Shown one piece after another: positions 14,142 through 31,794 of a DNA stretch of 53,144 nt. Every line of letters begins with the position of its first letter. Within the stretch, counting starts at the first letter, position 1. Below the pieces are notes generated by a model. It saw only the letters and a list, made by a program, of their open reading frames with translations. It made no database searches and was not told where the DNA came from. The stretch is from Deltaproteobacteria bacterium (GTDB lineage Bacteria; UBA10199; SPLOWO2-01-44-7), in assembly GCA_023265595.1 (NCBI GenBank), contig JAHFSU010000012.1, forward strand, positions 1 to 53,144, written 5' to 3'. The translations under genes were made by a program, and so were the position numbers.

Positions 14142-15332
<1,191 letters not shown>

Positions 15333-18759: not shown

Positions 18760-18781
18760 TTAGGTTTGAACTAAAGAACCG

Positions 18782-18833
18782 GAAGACGGAGGTTAGACAG
18801 GAGGGGTTTGTCTAACCTCTGGCTTCTGTTTTT
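18782..18833 (+). terminator. Intrinsic terminator or attenuator before rpoB
   Basis: GAGGTTAGACA (18789-18799) pairs perfectly with TGTCTAACCTC (18809-18819). An outer GAAG/CTTC pair extends it, and a T-rich TGTTTTT follows at 18827-18833. Placed between rplL and rpoB, it likely reduces rpoBC transcription relative to the stalk proteins, as attenuators at this site do in enteric bacteria. Confidence 0.75.
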
Positions 18834-18836
18834 CCA

Positions 18837-18944
18837 TTTTATGGTATTTTAATTTTTTGGTAGTACATCGTTGAGTTAAAAACCATAAGTATTTCTAACA
18901 TTTGAGACGCACCGAAGGTGCGGATCAAATGTTGAAATACTATA
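18837..18944. repeat. rpoBC-flanking inverted repeat, left copy
   Basis: A 108-bp sequence whose reverse complement matches 27307-27414 at about 94 of 108 positions by hand alignment with no gaps. It contains an inner hairpin with arms ACATTTGA / TCAAATGT. It ends just before the rpoB ribosome-binding site AAGGAG and so forms the rpoB leader. Confidence 0.9.
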
Positions 18945-18962
18945 ATACAAGGAGTTAAAATA

Positions 18963-21900
18963 ATGGCAACCCAATTTCCTGTTCGTCGGTTTCGTAAAGA
19001 TTTTTCGAAACTGAAAAATGTTATCGATATTCCCAACCTCATTGAAATCCAAAAGGCCTCCTTCGCAAAATTTCTGCAAGCCGATGTTCCTCTGGAACAG
19101 CGTCTCGATATCGGGTTGCAGGGGGTTTTCAAAAGTGTTTTCCCGATCAAAGATTATAACCAGACTGCATCGCTTGAATTTATCAGCTATCAGCTCGACC
19201 CGCCCAAGTACGATGTTGCCGAATGCCGTCTCCGCGGCATGACATTTGCGGCGCCGATTCGGGTTTTAGTTCGTCTGGTGGTTTGGAATATCGATCAGGA
19301 AAGCGGCGTGCAGAGCATCCGCGATGTCAAAGAGCAGGAGGTCTATTTTGGCGAAATTCCGTTGATGACCGAAAACGGAACCTTTATTGTTAATGGCACC
19401 GAACGCGTTGTGGTGAGCCAGTTGCACCGTTCTCCCGGCATCTTTTTTGAACACGACAAAGGCAAGACGCATTCTTCCGGAAAACTTTTATTTTCCGCGC
19501 GCGTGATTCCTTATCGCGGGGCGTGGCTTGATTTTGAATTTGATGCAAAGGATCTGATCCATGTCCGTGTCGATCGCCGTCGCAAAATGCCGGCAACGGC
19601 TTTATTACGGGCGCTAGGCCATACAGAAGAAGAGCTGCTGAATATTTTCTATTTTACGGAAACCGTCTCTTACGAAGGAAAACATTATTTCAAGAACATG
19701 GTTCCGGAAATTTTGACGTATCAGCGTGCGAGTAAAGATATTAAGGATAATAGCGGAGAGGTGGTTGTGCGCAAGGGCCGTAAATTTACGCCGGCCTTGA
19801 TCGAAAAACTCAAAAAATCGAAAATCAAACAGATTCCGGTTGAAGAGGAGGAGGTCATCGGGCGTATTGCCGCGCACGATATCATCGACAAAGCAACCGG
19901 CGAAGTGATTTTGGGCATGAATCAGGTTTTGACCGAAAAAATTCTTGAAGATCTCCGTCATCGCAAAATCAACGATCTTCCCCTCCTTTATATTGATGAC
20001 ATTAATTATGGTCCTTATTTGAGAAATACCTTGCTGGCGGATAAGATGGCCAATCCGGAAGAGGCGATGCTTGAAATTTACCGCCGTTTGCGTCCGGGCG
20101 ATCCGGCAACACCCGAAGCAGCATTGACCCTTTTCGAAAATCTCTTTTTCAACCCGGAGCGCTATGATCTTTCCAAAGTGGGGCGCCTCAAGATCAATTA
20201 TAAATTCGGTTTTGATGTGCCGCTCGAAGTGAGCACCTTGCGTAAGGAAGATCTCTTGGCCACCGTCAAATACCTGATGCGCCTCAAAGACGGTGAAGGG
20301 GAGATCGATGATATCGATCATCTCGGCAATCGCCGCATCCGCTCTGTCGGGGAATTGCTCGAAAACCAATATCGTGTCGGTTTGGTTCGGATGGATCGTG
20401 CGATCAAAGAGAGAATGAGTTTGCAAGATGTGGAGACACTCATGCCGCACGACCTGATCAATTCCAAACCGGTCTCTGCGGTCATCAAAGAATTTTTCGG
20501 TTCTTCACAATTGTCGCAATTTATGGATCAGACCAATCCGCTTGCGGAAATCACGCACAAACGCCGCCTGTCGGCTTTGGGCCCCGGTGGTTTGACACGC
20601 GAACGGGCCGGATTTGAAGTCCGTGACGTTCACCCAACGCATTATGGGCGTATCTGTCCGATTGAAACGCCGGAAGGTCCGAATATCGGTCTGATTTCGT
20701 CACTCTCCACCTATGCGCGGGTCAACCATTACGGTTTTATCGAAACACCGTATCGCAAAGTGGAAAATGGAAAAGTGACCGATGCTGTTTTTTATGCCTC
20801 CGCACTGGATGAGGCCAAGCACCTGATTGCACAGGCCAATGCCGCTGTCTCCAAAGAGGGCCATTTTGTGGCCGATATGGTTTCGTGTCGGAGTCACGGT
20901 GAGTTCACCACCTCATTGGCCAAAGAAGTGACCTTGATGGATGTCGCCCCGCAACAGCTCGTTTCCATTGCTGCGGCGTTGATTCCATTTTTGGAGCATG
21001 ACGACGCAAACCGTGCGTTGATGGGATCCAACATGCAGCGTCAGGCGGTTCCGCTCATGATCACTCAATCCCCGCTTGTCGGGACCGGTATTGAAAAAAT
21101 TGTGGCACGTGATTCCGGTGTTACACTGATTGCAAAACGGGATGGTGTCATTACGGAATGTGATGCGAACCGGATTGTGGTGCAGGCCGACAAAGTCGAA
21201 AAATCGAAGGGGGAAAAATATGCCTCCGATGTCGATATTTACAATCTGATCAAATACCAACGTTCGAACCAGAATACGTGTATCAACCAGCGGCCGATTG
21301 TTGCCGTTGGCGACAAAGTCAAAAAGGGCGAGGTTTTGGCCGATGGCCCATCCACGGAAGAGGGTGAGTTGGCGCTCGGCGCCAACGTCGTGGTCGCCTT
21401 TATGCCGTGGGGCGGTTACAATTTTGAAGATTCGATGCTCGTGAGCGAACGGTTGGTCAAGGACGACGTCTTTACCTCTATTCATATTGAGGAATTCGAA
21501 TGCGCGGCCCGCGATACCAAGCTGGGTAAAGAAGAAATCACACGCGATATTCCGAATGTCGGCGAAGAGGCCCTCAGAAATCTCGATGAAGGGGGTATCA
21601 TTCGGATCGGCGCTGAAGTCAAACCCGATGATATTTTGGTCGGCAAAATCACTCCGAAAGGGGAGACACAGCTCTCACCCGAAGAGAGATTGCTCCGCGC
21701 GATCTTCGGTGAAAAGGCCGGTGATGTGAAAGACACTTCGCTTCGGGTTCCGCCCGGTGTGGCCGGTATCGTCATCAACACGCAGGTTTTTTCGAGAGAG
21801 GGTGTGGAGGCCGATGACAGAACCAAAGAAATTCATGATGAAGAGACGCAAAAAATTTACAAAGACATGGAAGTGGAAATCAAAGGAATCCGCGATGCGG

Positions 21901-23099
21901 CGAAGAAAAAATTGAAATCCTTTTTAGTCGGCAAGACCTCCACCTCTAAAGTCACCGATGATACGGAAGAAAAGACACTCCTGAATAAAGGGAAAACCAT
22001 TACGGATGCTACTTTGGAAGCGATCCCGTTTGAAAAGTGGGGAGAAATTTCCATTGATGACGAAGCGCTTGAAGAACAGATTCAGGAGATGATCGAAGGG
22101 ATTGAAGAACAGGTCGATCTGGTCAAAATGATGTACGACCAAAAAATGAACCGGCTCAAAAGCGGCGATGAACTTCCTCCCGGAGTCATCAAACTCGTCA
22201 AGGTCTATGTGGCGATTAAACGGAAACTTTCGGTTGGTGACAAAATGGCCGGTCGTCACGGAAACAAAGGGGTGATCTCCCGCATCTTGCCGCTCGAAGA
22301 TATGCCCTACATGGCCGACGGCAGGGCGGTCGATCTGGTGCTGAACCCGCTCGGTGTTCCCTCCCGCATGAACGTGGGACAAATTTTGGAGACCCATTTG
22401 GGTTGGGCGGCCAAGGGGCTCGGTGAAAAAATAGGGGCGATGCTTGAAAACGGTTTTGACAAAGAATCGTTCACAAAACAGTTGAAGAAAATTTATGATT
22501 CACCGCTTGTTGATGAATTTGTCCAGAAGGCAACGGTGGAACAATTGAAAATACTCGGACGCAAATTGAAACGGGGTGTTCCGATGAAAACATCGGTGTT
22601 CGACGGCGCCACCGAGGCAGAAGTGAAAAATTGCCTCAAAGAGGCCGACCTTACTTTGCATGGTCAGGAGATTTTGTTCGACGGAAAAACGGGCGAGGCC
22701 TTTGATTCTCCCGTGACCGTCGGTGTGATGTACATGTTGAAACTCCACCACCTTGTTGATGACAAAATTCATGCCCGCTCGATTGGTCCTTATTCGCTCG
22801 TGACGCAGCAACCGCTCGGCGGCAAGGCGCAATTCGGCGGTCAACGTCTCGGTGAGATGGAAGTCTGGGCCCTTGAAGCCTATGGTGCCGCTTATTGTCT
22901 ACAGGAGTTTTTGACCGTGAAATCGGATGATGTGATCGGCCGCACACGTATGTATGAAGCGATCGTCAAAGGCGAAAGGGTTTTAGAACCGGGCCTGCCG
23001 GAATCCTTTAATGTATTGCTCAAAGAATTAATGGCATTGGGATTGGATGTCCAGCTTTTGGAAGCGGGCAACACCCCCGAAGCCAAACAGATTCATTAA
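18963..23099 (+). CDS. rpoB: RNA polymerase beta subunit
   Basis: A 1378-residue catalytic subunit. The rifampicin-cluster region [13 protein letters not shown] to [20 protein letters not shown] (about 513-550) has the wild-type, drug-sensitive residues. Downstream are [32 protein letters not shown] and the C-terminal [27 protein letters not shown], all in order. ATG 18963 follows AAGGAG. The leader holds one arm of the flanking inverted repeat. The gene is followed by rpoC after 17 bp. Confidence 0.99.
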
Positions 23100-23116
23100 T
23101 ATAAGGAGTTTCATTT

Positions 23117-26100
23117 ATGGTCGACATCTATAGTTTCTTTGAAAAACCGAAAGATCCGTTAAGCTACAACGGGATTCGCATCAAATTAGCCAGTCCCGAA
23201 ATGGTGCGCAGTTGGTCTCATGGCGAGGTCAAGAAGCCGGAAACCATCAACTATCGGACTTTCAAACCGGAAAGAGACGGTCTTTTCTGCGCCAAAATTT
23301 TTGGGCCTGTGAAAGATTACGAATGTAACTGCGGTAAATACAAACGGATGAAACACCGCGGGATTGTGTGCGAAAAATGCGGTGTCGAGGTGATCCAGTC
23401 CAAAGTCCGCCGTGAAAGAATGGGACACATTACTTTGGCAACACCGGTGGCCCATATCTGGTTTTTGAAAAGTCTTCCGTCCCGTATCGGTTTGATGCTC
23501 GATATTTCTCTCAAAGAATTGGAACGCGTTTTGTATTGCGAAGCCTATATGGTCAAAGACCCCGGCAACACAACCCTTGCAGAAGGGGAGGTGATGACGG
23601 AAGAGCATTATCAAAGGGCAATACAGGAATTTGGCCATACCTTTCATGTCGGCATGGGGGGCGAAGTCATCCGTGAAATGCTCAAAAAAGTCGATCTCGA
23701 TGAACTCTCCAAAAAATTGCGCAAAGATTTGAAAAAAACAAAATCGATGGCGCTCAGCAAAAAACTGGCGAAACGTTTGAAAATCGTGGAGCAATTCAAA
23801 GAATCGGACAACCGTCCCGACTGGATGATGATCGATCTTGTGCCGGTTCTTCCTCCCGATCTGCGTCCGTTGGTTCCTCTCGATGGCGGTCGTTTTGCCA
23901 CATCCGATCTGAATGATTTGTATCGTCGCGTGATCAATCGGAACAATCGCTTGAAACGGCTTATGGAACTGAACGCCCCCGATATCATCATTCGTAATGA
24001 AAAAAGAATGTTGCAGGAGGCCGTGGATGCGTTGTTTGACAACGGCCGCCGCGCAAAACCGTTTGTGGGTCCCAACAAAAGGGCGCTCCGTTCTCTCTCC
24101 GACATGCTCAAAGGGAAACAGGGTCGTTTCCGCCAAAATCTTTTGGGAAAGCGTGTCGATTACTCAGGCCGTTCCGTGATTGTGGTCGGTCCCGAATTGA
24201 AATTGCATCAATGCGGTCTCCCCAAAACAATGGCCTTGGAAATGTTCAAACCGTTTGTTTATCAGAAATTGGAAGAAAAGGGTCTCGCCTCGACCATCAA
24301 AAGCGCCAAACGTCTTGTGGAAGCGGAGCTGCCGGAAGTTTGGGATTCTTTGGATGAGGTGATTAAAGAACATCCGGTGTTGCTCAACCGCGCGCCGACA
24401 TTGCACCGTCTCGGTATTCAGGCTTTTGAACCGGTTCTCATTGAAGGCAAGGCCATTCAGCTTCACCCCCTTGTTTGCACCGCATTCAACGCTGACTTCG
24501 ACGGCGACCAGATGGCCGTTCACGTTCCTCTTTCGATTGAGGCACAGGTGGAAGCCCGCGTTTTGATGATGTCAACGAACAATATTTTATCTCCCGCCAG
24601 CGGCAAGCCGATTATCGTTCCGACGCAAGACATGGTTTTGGGCCTCTACTATTTGACGCGCGAACGGGCGTTTGCGAAAGGGGAAGGAAAAATCTTTTCG
24701 TCGCTCAATGAAGTGCGCATTGCCTATGATGCGGGCGAAGTCGATCTGCAGGCCAAAATTCAGTGCCGTCTGAACGGCAAAAGGGTCGAAACAACCGTCG
24801 GCCGCGTTCTTCTTTCCGAGGTGGTTCCCCCGGCCATTGAATTTGAAATGATCAACCGCGTGATGGATAAAAAGGCGATCGCAGAATTGATCGACCTTTG
24901 CTATCGTCTTTGCCGCGACAAAGAAACCGTTTTGTTAGCGGATAATTTACGCCGTCTCGGATTTGTGTATTCCTCAAAGGCCGGCATTTCCATCTGTATC
25001 GATGATATGGCCATTCCGCCCGCCAAAAAAGAATTGTTGGAATCGGCTTATAAAGAGGTGCGTGATGTGGAGGAGCAATATACGGAGGGGCTTATTACTT
25101 CAGGTGAAAAATATAATAAAGTTGTCGATATTTGGGCGCAAACCACCGAATCGATTGCGGGTGCGATGATGGAGGGTTTGCAACGGGAGACAGCCCTTTC
25201 TGAAAAAGGGGAAAAGAGGGAACAGCTCTCGTTTAATCCGATTTTCATCATGGCCGATTCAGGGGCCAGAGGTTCGGCACAGCAGATGCGCCAGTTGGCT
25301 GGCATGCGCGGTTTGATGGCCAAGCCGTCGGGCGAAATTATTGAAACCCCTATTACCGCTAATTTCCGCGAAGGTTTAAATGTGTTGCAATACTTTATTT
25401 CGACCCACGGTGCCCGGAAAGGTTTGGCCGACACCGCATTGAAAACCGCCAACTCCGGTTATCTCACACGTCGTCTGGTCGATGTGGCTCAAGACAGCGT
25501 GATTGGCGAGGTCGATTGCGGCACACTGGATGGAATCGACATGGAGGCCCTCGTTGAAGGGGGTGAGGTGATTGAAGGTTTGGGTGATCGCATCTTGGGA
25601 CGTGTGATTTTGGACGATGCCGCCGATCCTTTCAGCGGCGAAGTGCTCGTGGGCGCCGGTGAAGAGGTCACCGAAGAGGGTGTACAAAAAATTGAAGATG
25701 CCGGTGTTGAAAAGGTCCGTATCCGTTCGGTGCTGACTTGCCGTTGCCGTCAAGGAATTTGTATCAAATGCTATGGCCGTGATTTGGCCAGAGGACACCT
25801 CGTCTCGATTGGTGAAGCGGCCGGCGTGATTGCGGCGCAGGCGATCGGGGAACCCGGAACTCAGTTGACCATGAGAACCTTCCATATCGGCGGAACGGCT
25901 TCCCGTCGTGTGGAACAATCGACACTGGAATGCCGCCATCAGGGAACCATCAAATTCCACAATGAAAAAACAGTCGTTAATAAAGAGGGAAAATGGATTG
26001 TGATGAATCGGAACGCCGAAGTGGCCATTGCCGATGATGCAGACAGAGAACGGGAACGGTATCGTTTGACGTATGGCGCCGTCCTCAAAGTCAAATCGGG

Positions 26101-27247
26101 CGAAAAAGTAAAACCGGGAACGCTCATGGCCGAATGGGATCCGTATGCGACACCGATTTTGACCGAAGTGGCCGGTCAGGTTCGTTATGCCGATTTGACC
26201 GAAGGGATTTCCCTCAAAGAACAGGTCGATGAGGTGACCGGACTTGCGACAAAAGTGGTGACCACCCCGAAAAAAATCGATTACCGTCCTCGCATCACCA
26301 TTAAAAATGCGTCGGGCGAGACCGCAAAATTGCCCGACAGCAAAACCGAAGCGAGATATCTGCTTCCGGTCGGCGCGATTATCATGGTGACCGACGGAGA
26401 AGAATTGAAAGCGGGAGATGTGGTTGCGAAGATGCCTCGCGAAACAACGAAAACAAAAGATATCACCGGTGGTCTCCCGCGTGTTGCCGAACTTTTTGAG
26501 GCGAGGCGGCCTAAGGAGTATGCCGTGATCAGCGAAATTGACGGAAAGGTTTCTTTTGGAAAAGATACCAAAGGAAAACGAAAAGTCCTTGTTACTCCCG
26601 ATGTGGGCGAACCGATGGAATATCTGATCCCGAAAGGAAAACATATTTCGGTGCACGAAGGGGATTATGTGCGTGCCGGCGAGGCGTTGATGGATGGCTC
26701 CAGCAACCCGCACGATATTTTAAAAGTGCTCGGTGAAAAGGCATTGGCCAAATATCTGGTCGATGAAATTCAGGAGGTCTATCGTTTGCAAGGTGTGAAG
26801 CTCAATGACAAACATATTGAAGTAATTGTCCGCCAGATGTTGAAACGGGTCAAAATTATGGATCCCGGCGATAGCGAATGGTTGGCTGAAGAACATGTCG
26901 AAAAATGGGAATTTGCAGAAGTGAATGAAAAAATCCGTACCAAAGGGGGTACTCCTGCAACGGCAGAACCTCTCTTGCTCGGTATTACCAAGGCCTCTTT
27001 GTCAACAGACAGTTTTGTATCGGCGGCCTCTTTCCAAGAAACCACAAAAGTTCTAACGGAAGCGGCGATTTCAGGGCGTGTCGATAATTTGAGAGGTCTA
27101 AAAGAGAATGTGATTATGGGTCGCCCCATTCCGGCGGGTACCGGTTTGCATCGTTACAAAGATGTGCCTATTGAAGTGGAAGAGGCGGCAGAGGTTGTTG
27201 CCGCAGAACATGAAGAGATGGATGTAACCCATAGTCTTGCAGGATAA
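23117..27247 (+). CDS. rpoC: RNA polymerase beta' subunit
   Basis: A 1376-residue catalytic subunit. The N-terminal zinc site CNC...CEKC begins near residue 71, the active-site magnesium loop NADFDGDQM lies at about 458-466, and a second zinc site with [11 protein letters not shown] is near 875. The trigger-loop region [16 protein letters not shown] is intact. Long linear form without the split or large insertions seen in some lineages. A strong TAAGGAG precedes ATG. No terminator directly follows; the other inverted-repeat copy does. Confidence 0.99.
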
Positions 27248-27306
27248 GGTTTAAGATTTCGCTACTTAATTAATTTGAGTTCAAGTAGCAGATGAATAAA
27301 GTGATA

Positions 27307-27414
27307 TATAGTATTTCAACATTTGAGACGTACCGCAGGTGCGGATCAAATGTTAGGAATACTTATGGTTTTTAACTCAACGATGTATTAGAAAAAAGTT
27401 AAAATACCACAAAA
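27307..27414. repeat. rpoBC-flanking inverted repeat, right copy
   Basis: Inverted copy of 18837-18944. The outer arms are inverted, but the asymmetric 19-bp hairpin centre (GACGTACCGCAGGTGCGGA) reads in the same orientation on the + strand as in the left copy (GACGCACCGAAGGTGCGGA). It lies in the 308-bp gap between rpoC and rpsL, which otherwise holds the str promoter and no gene. Confidence 0.9.
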
Positions 27415-27460: not shown

Positions 27461-27489
27461 TTGACTCCAAAAGGCCTTTTTGTTAGGTT
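27461..27489 (+). promoter_or_regulatory. Predicted promoter of the str-S10-spc-alpha superoperon
   Basis: TTGACT at 27461-27466, a 17-bp spacer and TAGGTT at 27484-27489, about 65 bp before rpsL. A short hairpin-prone stretch (GCCCCACT...AGGTGGGC, 27503-27522) follows in the leader. The context CCTTGAC resembles the tRNA-tuf promoter. Confidence 0.6.
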
Positions 27490-27927: not shown

Positions 27928-28002
27928 GCGTGAATCGTGATTCGTGATTCGTGAATCGAAAAAAACGATCCACGAAATACGATTCACGACCCACGAAAAA
28001 AT
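27928..28002. repeat. GTGAATCG-family repeat, copy 2
   Basis: The entire rpsL-rpsG spacer is alternating CGTGAATCG, CGTGATTCG and CGATTCACGA units with an ACGATCCACGA piece, so several stem-loops are possible. It runs directly into the rpsG start and leaves no Shine-Dalgarno sequence. Related to copies at 15489-15579 and 44585-44656. Confidence 0.75.

Positions 28003-30603: not shown

Positions 30604-31794
<1,191 letters not shown>

What the first reader, a model, noticed from the sequence alone, without database searches (positions are those of the whole stretch)
18837..27414. rpoB-rpoC bracketed by 108-bp inverted repeats
The leader of rpoB (18837-18944) and the region after rpoC (27307-27414) are inverted copies, about 94 of 108 positions matching with no gaps. 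Each holds an inner hairpin with ACATTTGA / TCAAATGT arms. The asymmetric hairpin centre keeps the same + strand orientation in both copies while the outer arms are inverted, so the centre has been exchanged or flipped separately. This could allow inversion of an 8.4-kb essential unit, reflect a pair of small mobile elements, or supply a paired start/stop control. I know of no described system with this arrangement.
Basis: partly seen in the sequence, partly recalled or inferred. Interest (0 to 1): 0.72.

Follow-up and report, generated by a model that had tools for sequence, protein, structure and literature searches.

The report
Small mobile repeat flanking rpoBC twice
The matching sequences on either side of the RNA polymerase genes are two of nine copies of a small palindromic mobile element that most likely jumped in separately, so the bracketing of these essential genes looks like a coincidence and not a control device.

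Summary
In detail: 18837-18944 and 27307-27414 are inverted copies, 94 of 108 positions identical, and the centre of one copy is flipped. The pairing around rpoBC is not special. The 1.87-Mb draft genome holds nine full-length copies on seven contigs, including a second inverted pair with similar spacing around unrelated genes. Neither rpoBC site is filled in the same-genus genome or in four other genomes of the family. In this genome the element is 105 bp (TA ends included), 69% A+T, and consists of two abutting hairpins with imperfect terminal inverted repeats. At ispD-ispF the same-genus genome is empty, and our flanks joined with a single TA match it in length, frame and ATGA overlap; the net insertion is 103 bp. 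This fits bacterial TA-bounded MITEs such as Correia and RUP. Related copies occur patchily in 14 of 46 genomes of the class (own included); an exact-pattern scan of species genomes found it only in five MAGs of this class. No matching transposase was found. Verdict: a new family of a known kind, with two independent insertions. The conserved two-hairpin body, with a retained extra base in one arm, is the one feature beyond routine.

The parts
18840..18944 (+). Element copy 1 (TA-bounded, two hairpins), between the rplL-rpoB terminator-like hairpin and the rpoB ribosome-binding site; its centre is flipped relative to the family
   Evidence: (model R2, 104 bits)
18840..18887 (+). Hairpin A of copy 1 (TATGGT...ACCATA), one bulged base on the 5' arm
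   Evidence: fold; alignment
18888..18941 (+). Hairpin B of copy 1 (AGTATTTC[T]AAC...GTTGAAATACT), one bulged T on the 5' arm
   Evidence: fold; covariation
27307..27411 (-). Element copy 2, inverted, between rpoC and rpsL; its left terminal dinucleotide is TG in place of TA
   Evidence: model R2, 97.5 bits
27364..27411 (-). Hairpin A of copy 2
   Evidence: fold
27310..27363 (-). Hairpin B of copy 2 (centre in family orientation)
   Evidence: fold; orientation by eye
18777..18831 (+). Terminator-like hairpin after rplL; host context, not part of the element
   Evidence: (I6)
27461..27489 (+). Promoter-like block TTGACT-N17-TAGGTT before rpsL; similar blocks (spacer 17-18) in the five family relatives. 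Host context, found by eye; the promoter scan did not call it
   Evidence: sequences; one search found no promoter

Best explanation
The two repeats are two independent insertions of one non-autonomous, TA-targeting miniature inverted-repeat transposable element (MITE). The element is 105 bp in this genome and noncoding: two abutting hairpins, A then B, with imperfect terminal inverted repeats and TA at both ends. A transposase supplied in trans, most likely of the IS630/Tc1-mariner kind, would cut at the ends and insert into a TA that ends up on both sides (the net 103-bp insertion is shown at one site; the enzyme and the duplication are inferred). Insertions in short intergenic gaps survive; one landed in the rpoB leader and another, in the opposite orientation, behind rpoC. 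The flipped centre in the rpoB copy came from template switching or hairpin inversion between the palindrome arms (inferred). In transcripts both copies should fold into strong hairpins, which may change mRNA processing, but no dedicated role at rpoBC is indicated.
For: Nine full-length copies in the own genome, the same nine with model R2. Empty site: our ispD-ispF flanks joined with one TA match the same-genus locus L230 in length, frame and ATGA overlap. Of 78 copies, 71 start and 75 end with TA; in the 68 with TA at both ends the flanks beyond TA carry at most 0.41 bit per position. Ends agree as inverted repeats at a mean 9.2 of 14 positions in 57 copies (TA included), 5.7 when shuffled; 11 of 14 in eight own-genome copies. 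A+T 69%. Three head-to-tail copies sharing TA in G044. Absent upstream of rpoB in 29 of 29 relatives' loci fetched, out of 39 relatives searched, and from 5 of 5 family rpoC-rpsL gaps. Patchy: 14 of 46 genomes of the class, own included.
Against: No transposase with these ends was found. DDE_3 (PF13358) is absent from the own genome and matched 5 of 40 genomes and, weakly, G044 (8 genomes, six of them new). The six loci (two overlapping, one at a contig edge) lack these ends within 2 mismatches; the G044 locus was not examined. Only one empty site fits exactly, and there the relative reads TG, not TA, at the target position; def-fmt is off by one base. The same net insertion could arise from an element that inserts after TA and itself ends in TA, without duplication. 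The TA counts are partly built in, because copies were bounded with motifs that contain TA. The conserved extra base and the covarying hairpins are more elaborate than a TIR-only MITE needs.
Confidence: 0.86

Rival explanations
1. REP/BIME-type or IS200/IS605-derived palindromes moved by a Y1 (HUH) transposase that recognises the bulged hairpins in single-stranded DNA.
For: Two tandem hairpins with an extra base kept on the 5' arm of hairpin B (48 of 50 aligned rows; 65 of 78 by a strict pattern). Y1_Tnp matches in 35 of 40 genomes, own included, five of them in the own genome. On C31 an element lies about 1.9 kb from a Y1 gene, with other genes between.
Against: No complete element within the flanks of 30 Y1 loci examined (of 102 matches listed, one of the five own-genome ones); two loci had isolated fuzzy terminus matches. 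The C31 Y1 gene has a different palindrome just upstream. The same-genus genome has seven Y1 matches and no copy, while G035 and G015 have copies and no Y1 match. The target is only TA, without a longer site.
Confidence: 0.08
2. An invertible 8.4-kb rpoBC segment, or a paired start/stop control at its two ends.
For: Inverted orientation with a 30-bp identical run, enough in principle for occasional homologous recombination (general knowledge). Two promoter-like sites near the end of the rpoB-side copy, 0.7 expected.
Against: The same element sits at unrelated genes, and C22 has another inverted pair with similar spacing around genes that look like a kinase, mntR and mntH. No terminator-like site was called in either element. 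Both sites are empty in the five family relatives.
Confidence: 0.02
3. A conserved structured RNA (leader, riboswitch or processing element) that happens to be copied around the genome.
For: Strong folding at the rpoB leader (-43 kcal/mol, z -9.7) and covariation score 0.184 against 0.074 in shuffles.
Against: No Rfam family matched the window's elements. Copies occur in both orientations relative to genes and also between convergent genes. Arm homogenisation by template switching gives the same kind of covariation (PMC8794818, passages).
Confidence: 0.05

Closest known systems
RUP (repeat unit of pneumococcus, 107 bp)
   Same: Size, intergenic location, terminal inverted repeats, insertion at TA, noncoding (PMC2229807, passages)
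   Different: RUP shares its ends with IS630-Spn1 in the same genome; here no partner IS was found. Different sequence, and two abutting hairpins in this element.
Correia elements / NEMIS of Neisseria
   Same: TA termini, TIR, A+T-rich, strong hairpin (PMC2229807 and PMC10969869, passages)
   Different: TIR of 24-26 bp there, about 14 imperfect bp here; more than 120 copies there, nine here; promoters and RNase III processing are shown there and untested here. A resemblance of the terminal letters is recalled only: the paper sought for it was not held.
CIR elements of Caulobacter and Brucella
   Same: Two inverted repeats forming two arms (PMC2229807, passages)
   Different: CIRs have a linker and an exposed GANTC site and are listed without TIR; here the hairpins abut and TIR and TA ends are present
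REP/BIME with RAYT (Y1) transposases
   Same: Short intergenic palindromes, tandem arrangement, bulged hairpins (REP features recalled)
   Different: TA-bounded insertion, TA-only target, no Y1 gene found beside a copy in the 30 loci examined

Membership tests
TA-bounded bacterial MITE (Correia/RUP type) | Under 200 bp, not coding for a transposase | tested here: met
   105 bp in the own genome; no gene, though one frame is stop-free for 34 codons in eight of nine copies
TA-bounded bacterial MITE (Correia/RUP type) | Terminal inverted repeats | tested here: met
   Mean 11 of 14 in eight own-genome copies; 9.2 of 14 in 57 copies against 5.7 shuffled, TA included; imperfect, weaker in G020 and G024
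TA-bounded bacterial MITE (Correia/RUP type) | TA at both termini | tested here: met
   71 and 75 of 78 copies start or end with TA, with the caution that the bounding motifs contain TA
TA-bounded bacterial MITE (Correia/RUP type) | Target-site duplication (TA) | tested here: inconclusive
   ispD-ispF reduces to a site of the relative's length with one TA, but the relative reads TG there; def-fmt is one base off. Insertion after TA without duplication is not excluded.
TA-bounded bacterial MITE (Correia/RUP type) | A+T-rich, dispersed, mostly intergenic | tested here: met
   69% A+T; nine copies on seven contigs; crude ORF call: 24 of 78 overlap an ORF by more than 12 bases, 2 of them wholly, both ORFs without a Pfam match
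TA-bounded bacterial MITE (Correia/RUP type) | An autonomous IS with the same ends in the host or relatives (usual, not obligatory) | tested here: not met
   DDE_3 absent from the own genome; six DDE_3 loci without these ends; one weak match in G044 not examined
IS630/Tc1-mariner-mobilised element | Transposition by a DDE_3-type enzyme | not testable with these tools
   Inferred from the TA target only
REP/BIME (RAYT-associated) | Repeats flank a Y1/RAYT gene | tested here: not met
   No complete element in the flanks of 30 of 102 Y1 matches
Invertible DNA segment | Both orientations present in the population | not testable with these tools
   Only assemblies are available
Rfam RNA families | Score above the gathering threshold | tested here: not met
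   Only five tRNAs in the window

The most novel reading that the evidence does not exclude
The element is not a TIR-only MITE but a two-hairpin substrate with a functional bulge: an unknown, possibly hairpin-recognising enzyme of this bacterial class moves an A-B dimer whose junction (ACCATAAGTATTTCTAAC) and extra base are kept across families while the hairpin sequences turn over in a paired way, combining a REP-like substrate with TA-bounded insertion.
Probability: 0.12. Interest if true: 0.55.

Novelty: new member of a known kind. Interest (0 to 1): 0.27.

Why it matters
It removes a striking but misleading reading (an invertible or bracketed RNA polymerase operon) and replaces it with a defined mobile-element family of an uncultured bacterial class, with boundaries, an empty site and a search model. 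It is also a clear example of strong base-pair covariation that need not mean RNA function, because palindromic mobile DNA can produce it. The missing transposase and the retained extra base are testable open points.

Tried and rejected
IS630 partner: the DDE_3 loci L063-L068 were searched for the ends, and five of them (L063-L067) for inverted repeats; none fits. L065 looks by eye like a degraded IS630 remnant. L063 lies at a contig edge, so one of its ends may be missing.

RAYT/REP origin: Y1_Tnp survey and 30 of its 102 matches; rejected as the main reading, not excluded.

Copies inside genes: two copies lay wholly inside ORFs (L165, L180). The ORFs have no Pfam match and read by eye like spurious ORFs, so they are not counted as coding. 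One search translated the L165 element in another frame and says nothing on this.

Other flipped centres: three further copies (L144, L145, L165) score 1-2 positions nearer to the reverse complement, but they are far from both forms, so no flip is claimed for them.

Phage link: the exact pattern is absent from viral contigs.

RNA model R1 was built with a structure shifted by one column; it was not used. R2 replaced it.

Dropped rows: one search gave 101 anchors; one search kept 78 copies and dropped 23 (no recognisable end, N-masked, or chance anchors). A1 uses 50 of the 61 distinct copies of 101-107 nt listed; 11 were left out by eye. One search's flank count uses 68 of 78, one search uses 57 of 78.

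Full report
OBSERVATION. The inverted repeat is real and as described: arms 18837-18944 and 27307-27414, 108 nt, 87% complementary, 8362 nt apart; 94 of 108 positions agree and the longest identical run is 30. A genome search with the first copy hits the second at E 3.7e-32. Comparison with the other copies trims the element to 18840-18944 (+) and 27307-27411 (-).

DISPERSAL. A search of the own genome (G000, 1,868,988 bases, 70 contigs) with the rpoB-leader copy finds nine full-length copies, on C40 (two), C22 (two), C62, C35, C44, C31 and C16, plus a truncated copy on C16 and short partial matches. Model R2 gives the same nine. C22 carries a second inverted pair, 8257 bp between its copies by the R2 coordinates, around genes that look like a Ser/Thr kinase, an MntR-like regulator, MntH, a universal stress protein and an EamA transporter (named from the sequence by knowledge, not by a family search). 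In 20,000 simulations with nine random copies on one linear genome, at least one adjacent pair within 8.5 kb occurs in 28%, an inverted one in 15%, two pairs in 3.4%. The last figure hints at mild clustering, but the threshold was chosen after seeing the data.

RELATIVES. The relatives search covers 40 genomes, the own one included. rpoB was found in 37 of 40; loci of 29 relatives (L034-L062), each with up to 1.5 kb upstream, were scanned and none has the element before rpoB; one weak terminus-like match in L058 lies about 1.2 kb upstream. The rplL-rpoB gaps of five family members are shown and their rpoC-rpsL gaps; none holds it by eye. Model R2 (run with stricter filters) finds no copy in four of these five genomes, and in the fifth (G004) one locus, on another contig than rpoBC. 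Thus both rpoBC copies are specific to this species among the genomes examined. The leader keeps a terminator-like hairpin after rplL, and a promoter-like block before rpsL is shared with the relatives (by eye; the scan did not call it), so both insertions seem to sit beside the host signals and not in them (inference). One search lists two promoter-like sites that overlap or abut the end of the rpoB-side copy (0.7 expected from shuffles); the + strand one ends one base before the start codon and would start transcription inside rpoB.

INSERTION MECHANICS. At ispD-ispF (L007) the same-genus locus L230 is empty. Joining our flanks with a single TA gives the same length to the overlapping ATGA, with the ispD frame kept; the relative reads TG where we have TA, in a synonymous leucine codon. 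At def-fmt the joined site, read by eye, is one base shorter than in the relative. Of 78 copies, 71 start and 75 end with TA, and in the 68 with both the flanks beyond TA carry at most 0.41 bit per position; the bounding motifs contain TA, so these counts are partly built in. The two ends agree at 9.2 of 14 positions on average in 57 copies (TA included), 11 of 14 in eight own-genome copies, against 5.7 after shuffling. In G044 three copies lie head to tail, sharing TA. This is the pattern described for TA-bounded bacterial MITEs (PMC2229807, passages read). One caution: these data do not separate duplication of TA from insertion after TA of an element that itself ends in TA.

ANATOMY. Each full copy is hairpin A (TATGGT...ACCATA) directly followed by hairpin B (AGTATTTC[T]AAC...GTTGAAATACT). 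The rpoB-leader copy folds at -43 kcal/mol (z -9.7) on the + strand. In 50 aligned copies, 12 pairs show changes on both sides and the covariation score is 0.184 against 0.074 in shuffles; with partners slid by 1-3 columns it is at most 0.077. The number of pairs with a change on both sides is by itself not unusual (107 of 500 shuffles reach it; a slide of -2 gives 13), and 'further pair types' is lower than in all shuffles, so the signal rests on a few strongly covarying positions (columns 66-97, 70-93, 74-89). The structure was taken from one of the rows, which favours it. Much of hairpin A's upper stem is not conserved as pairs (70% of cells paired in helix 1, 92% in helix 2). Hairpin B has an extra base on its 5' arm in 48 of 50 rows. 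Such covariation need not mean RNA function, because template switching between palindrome arms produces paired changes and inverted loops (PMC8794818, passages; PMC8604942, start of abstract in the listing). The flipped centre of the rpoB copy (8 differences to the family, 1 to its reverse complement) is such a loop inversion. Solo A, solo B and three-part variants occur in relatives (by eye).

DISTRIBUTION. With R2, 14 of the 46 class genomes held (own included) have a match at E up to 0.001, patchily across families. Viral contigs gave none for the same exact pattern. No Rfam family matched the elements.

WHO MOVES IT. IS630-type DDE_3 is absent from the own genome and rare in the class (5 of 40 genomes; one match below cut-off in G044 among 8 genomes, six of them new), and the six loci lack these ends. 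Y1_Tnp is common (35 of 40 genomes), but no complete element lies in the flanks of the 30 loci examined, and G035 and G015 have copies without any Y1 match. The enzyme therefore stays unknown; a TA-targeting DDE enzyme is the most likely by analogy with RUP (PMC2229807, passages; PMC3049150, passages).

VERDICT. Two independent insertions of a new MITE family of a known kind flank rpoBC, most likely by coincidence. A general effect on transcripts is possible, since MITEs such as Correia are reported to affect processing and promoters (PMC10969869, passages), but nothing here points to a rpoBC-specific device. Paper searches listed nothing that describes this family, judged from titles, abstract starts and the passages named; the library holds open papers only.

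Noticed in passing
window 14142-15332 and 30604-31794: Two 396-aa ORFs of equal length, probably tuf (EF-Tu) copies, bracket rpoBC; in many relatives the rpoBC contig is about 15 kb long, perhaps because assemblies break at them.
   Followed up: no
window 27929-27988: Another palindrome (24-nt arms, 83% complementary) in the rpsL-rpsG gap, built of short degenerate repeats (I5).
   Followed up: no
L034, L035, L036, L038, upstream of rpoB: The rplL-rpoB gap of relatives holds palindromes made of GGACCATGGACTAT-like units, apparently a different repeat class.
   Followed up: no
L243 (G000:C22:50000-61000): Second inverted pair of the same element, 8257 bp apart; one copy supplies the last codons and stop of a 1081-aa kinase-like protein.
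   Followed up: partly
L246 (G044:C176:11430-11737): Three head-to-tail copies with a 102-bp period sharing TA.
   Followed up: partly
L108, L111, L112, L113: Longer variant with an extra small hairpin (CCTGCAAAATTGRTAAGCAGG) at the A-B junction.
   Followed up: no
the nine own-genome copies: Eight of nine have a reading frame without stops over 34 codons, nearly the whole element; not examined for use as a coding insertion.
   Followed up: no
window 18932-18961: Promoter-like match (TTGAAA-N18-TAAAAT) made by the conserved right end of the rpoB-side copy plus flank; close to chance expectation.
   Followed up: no
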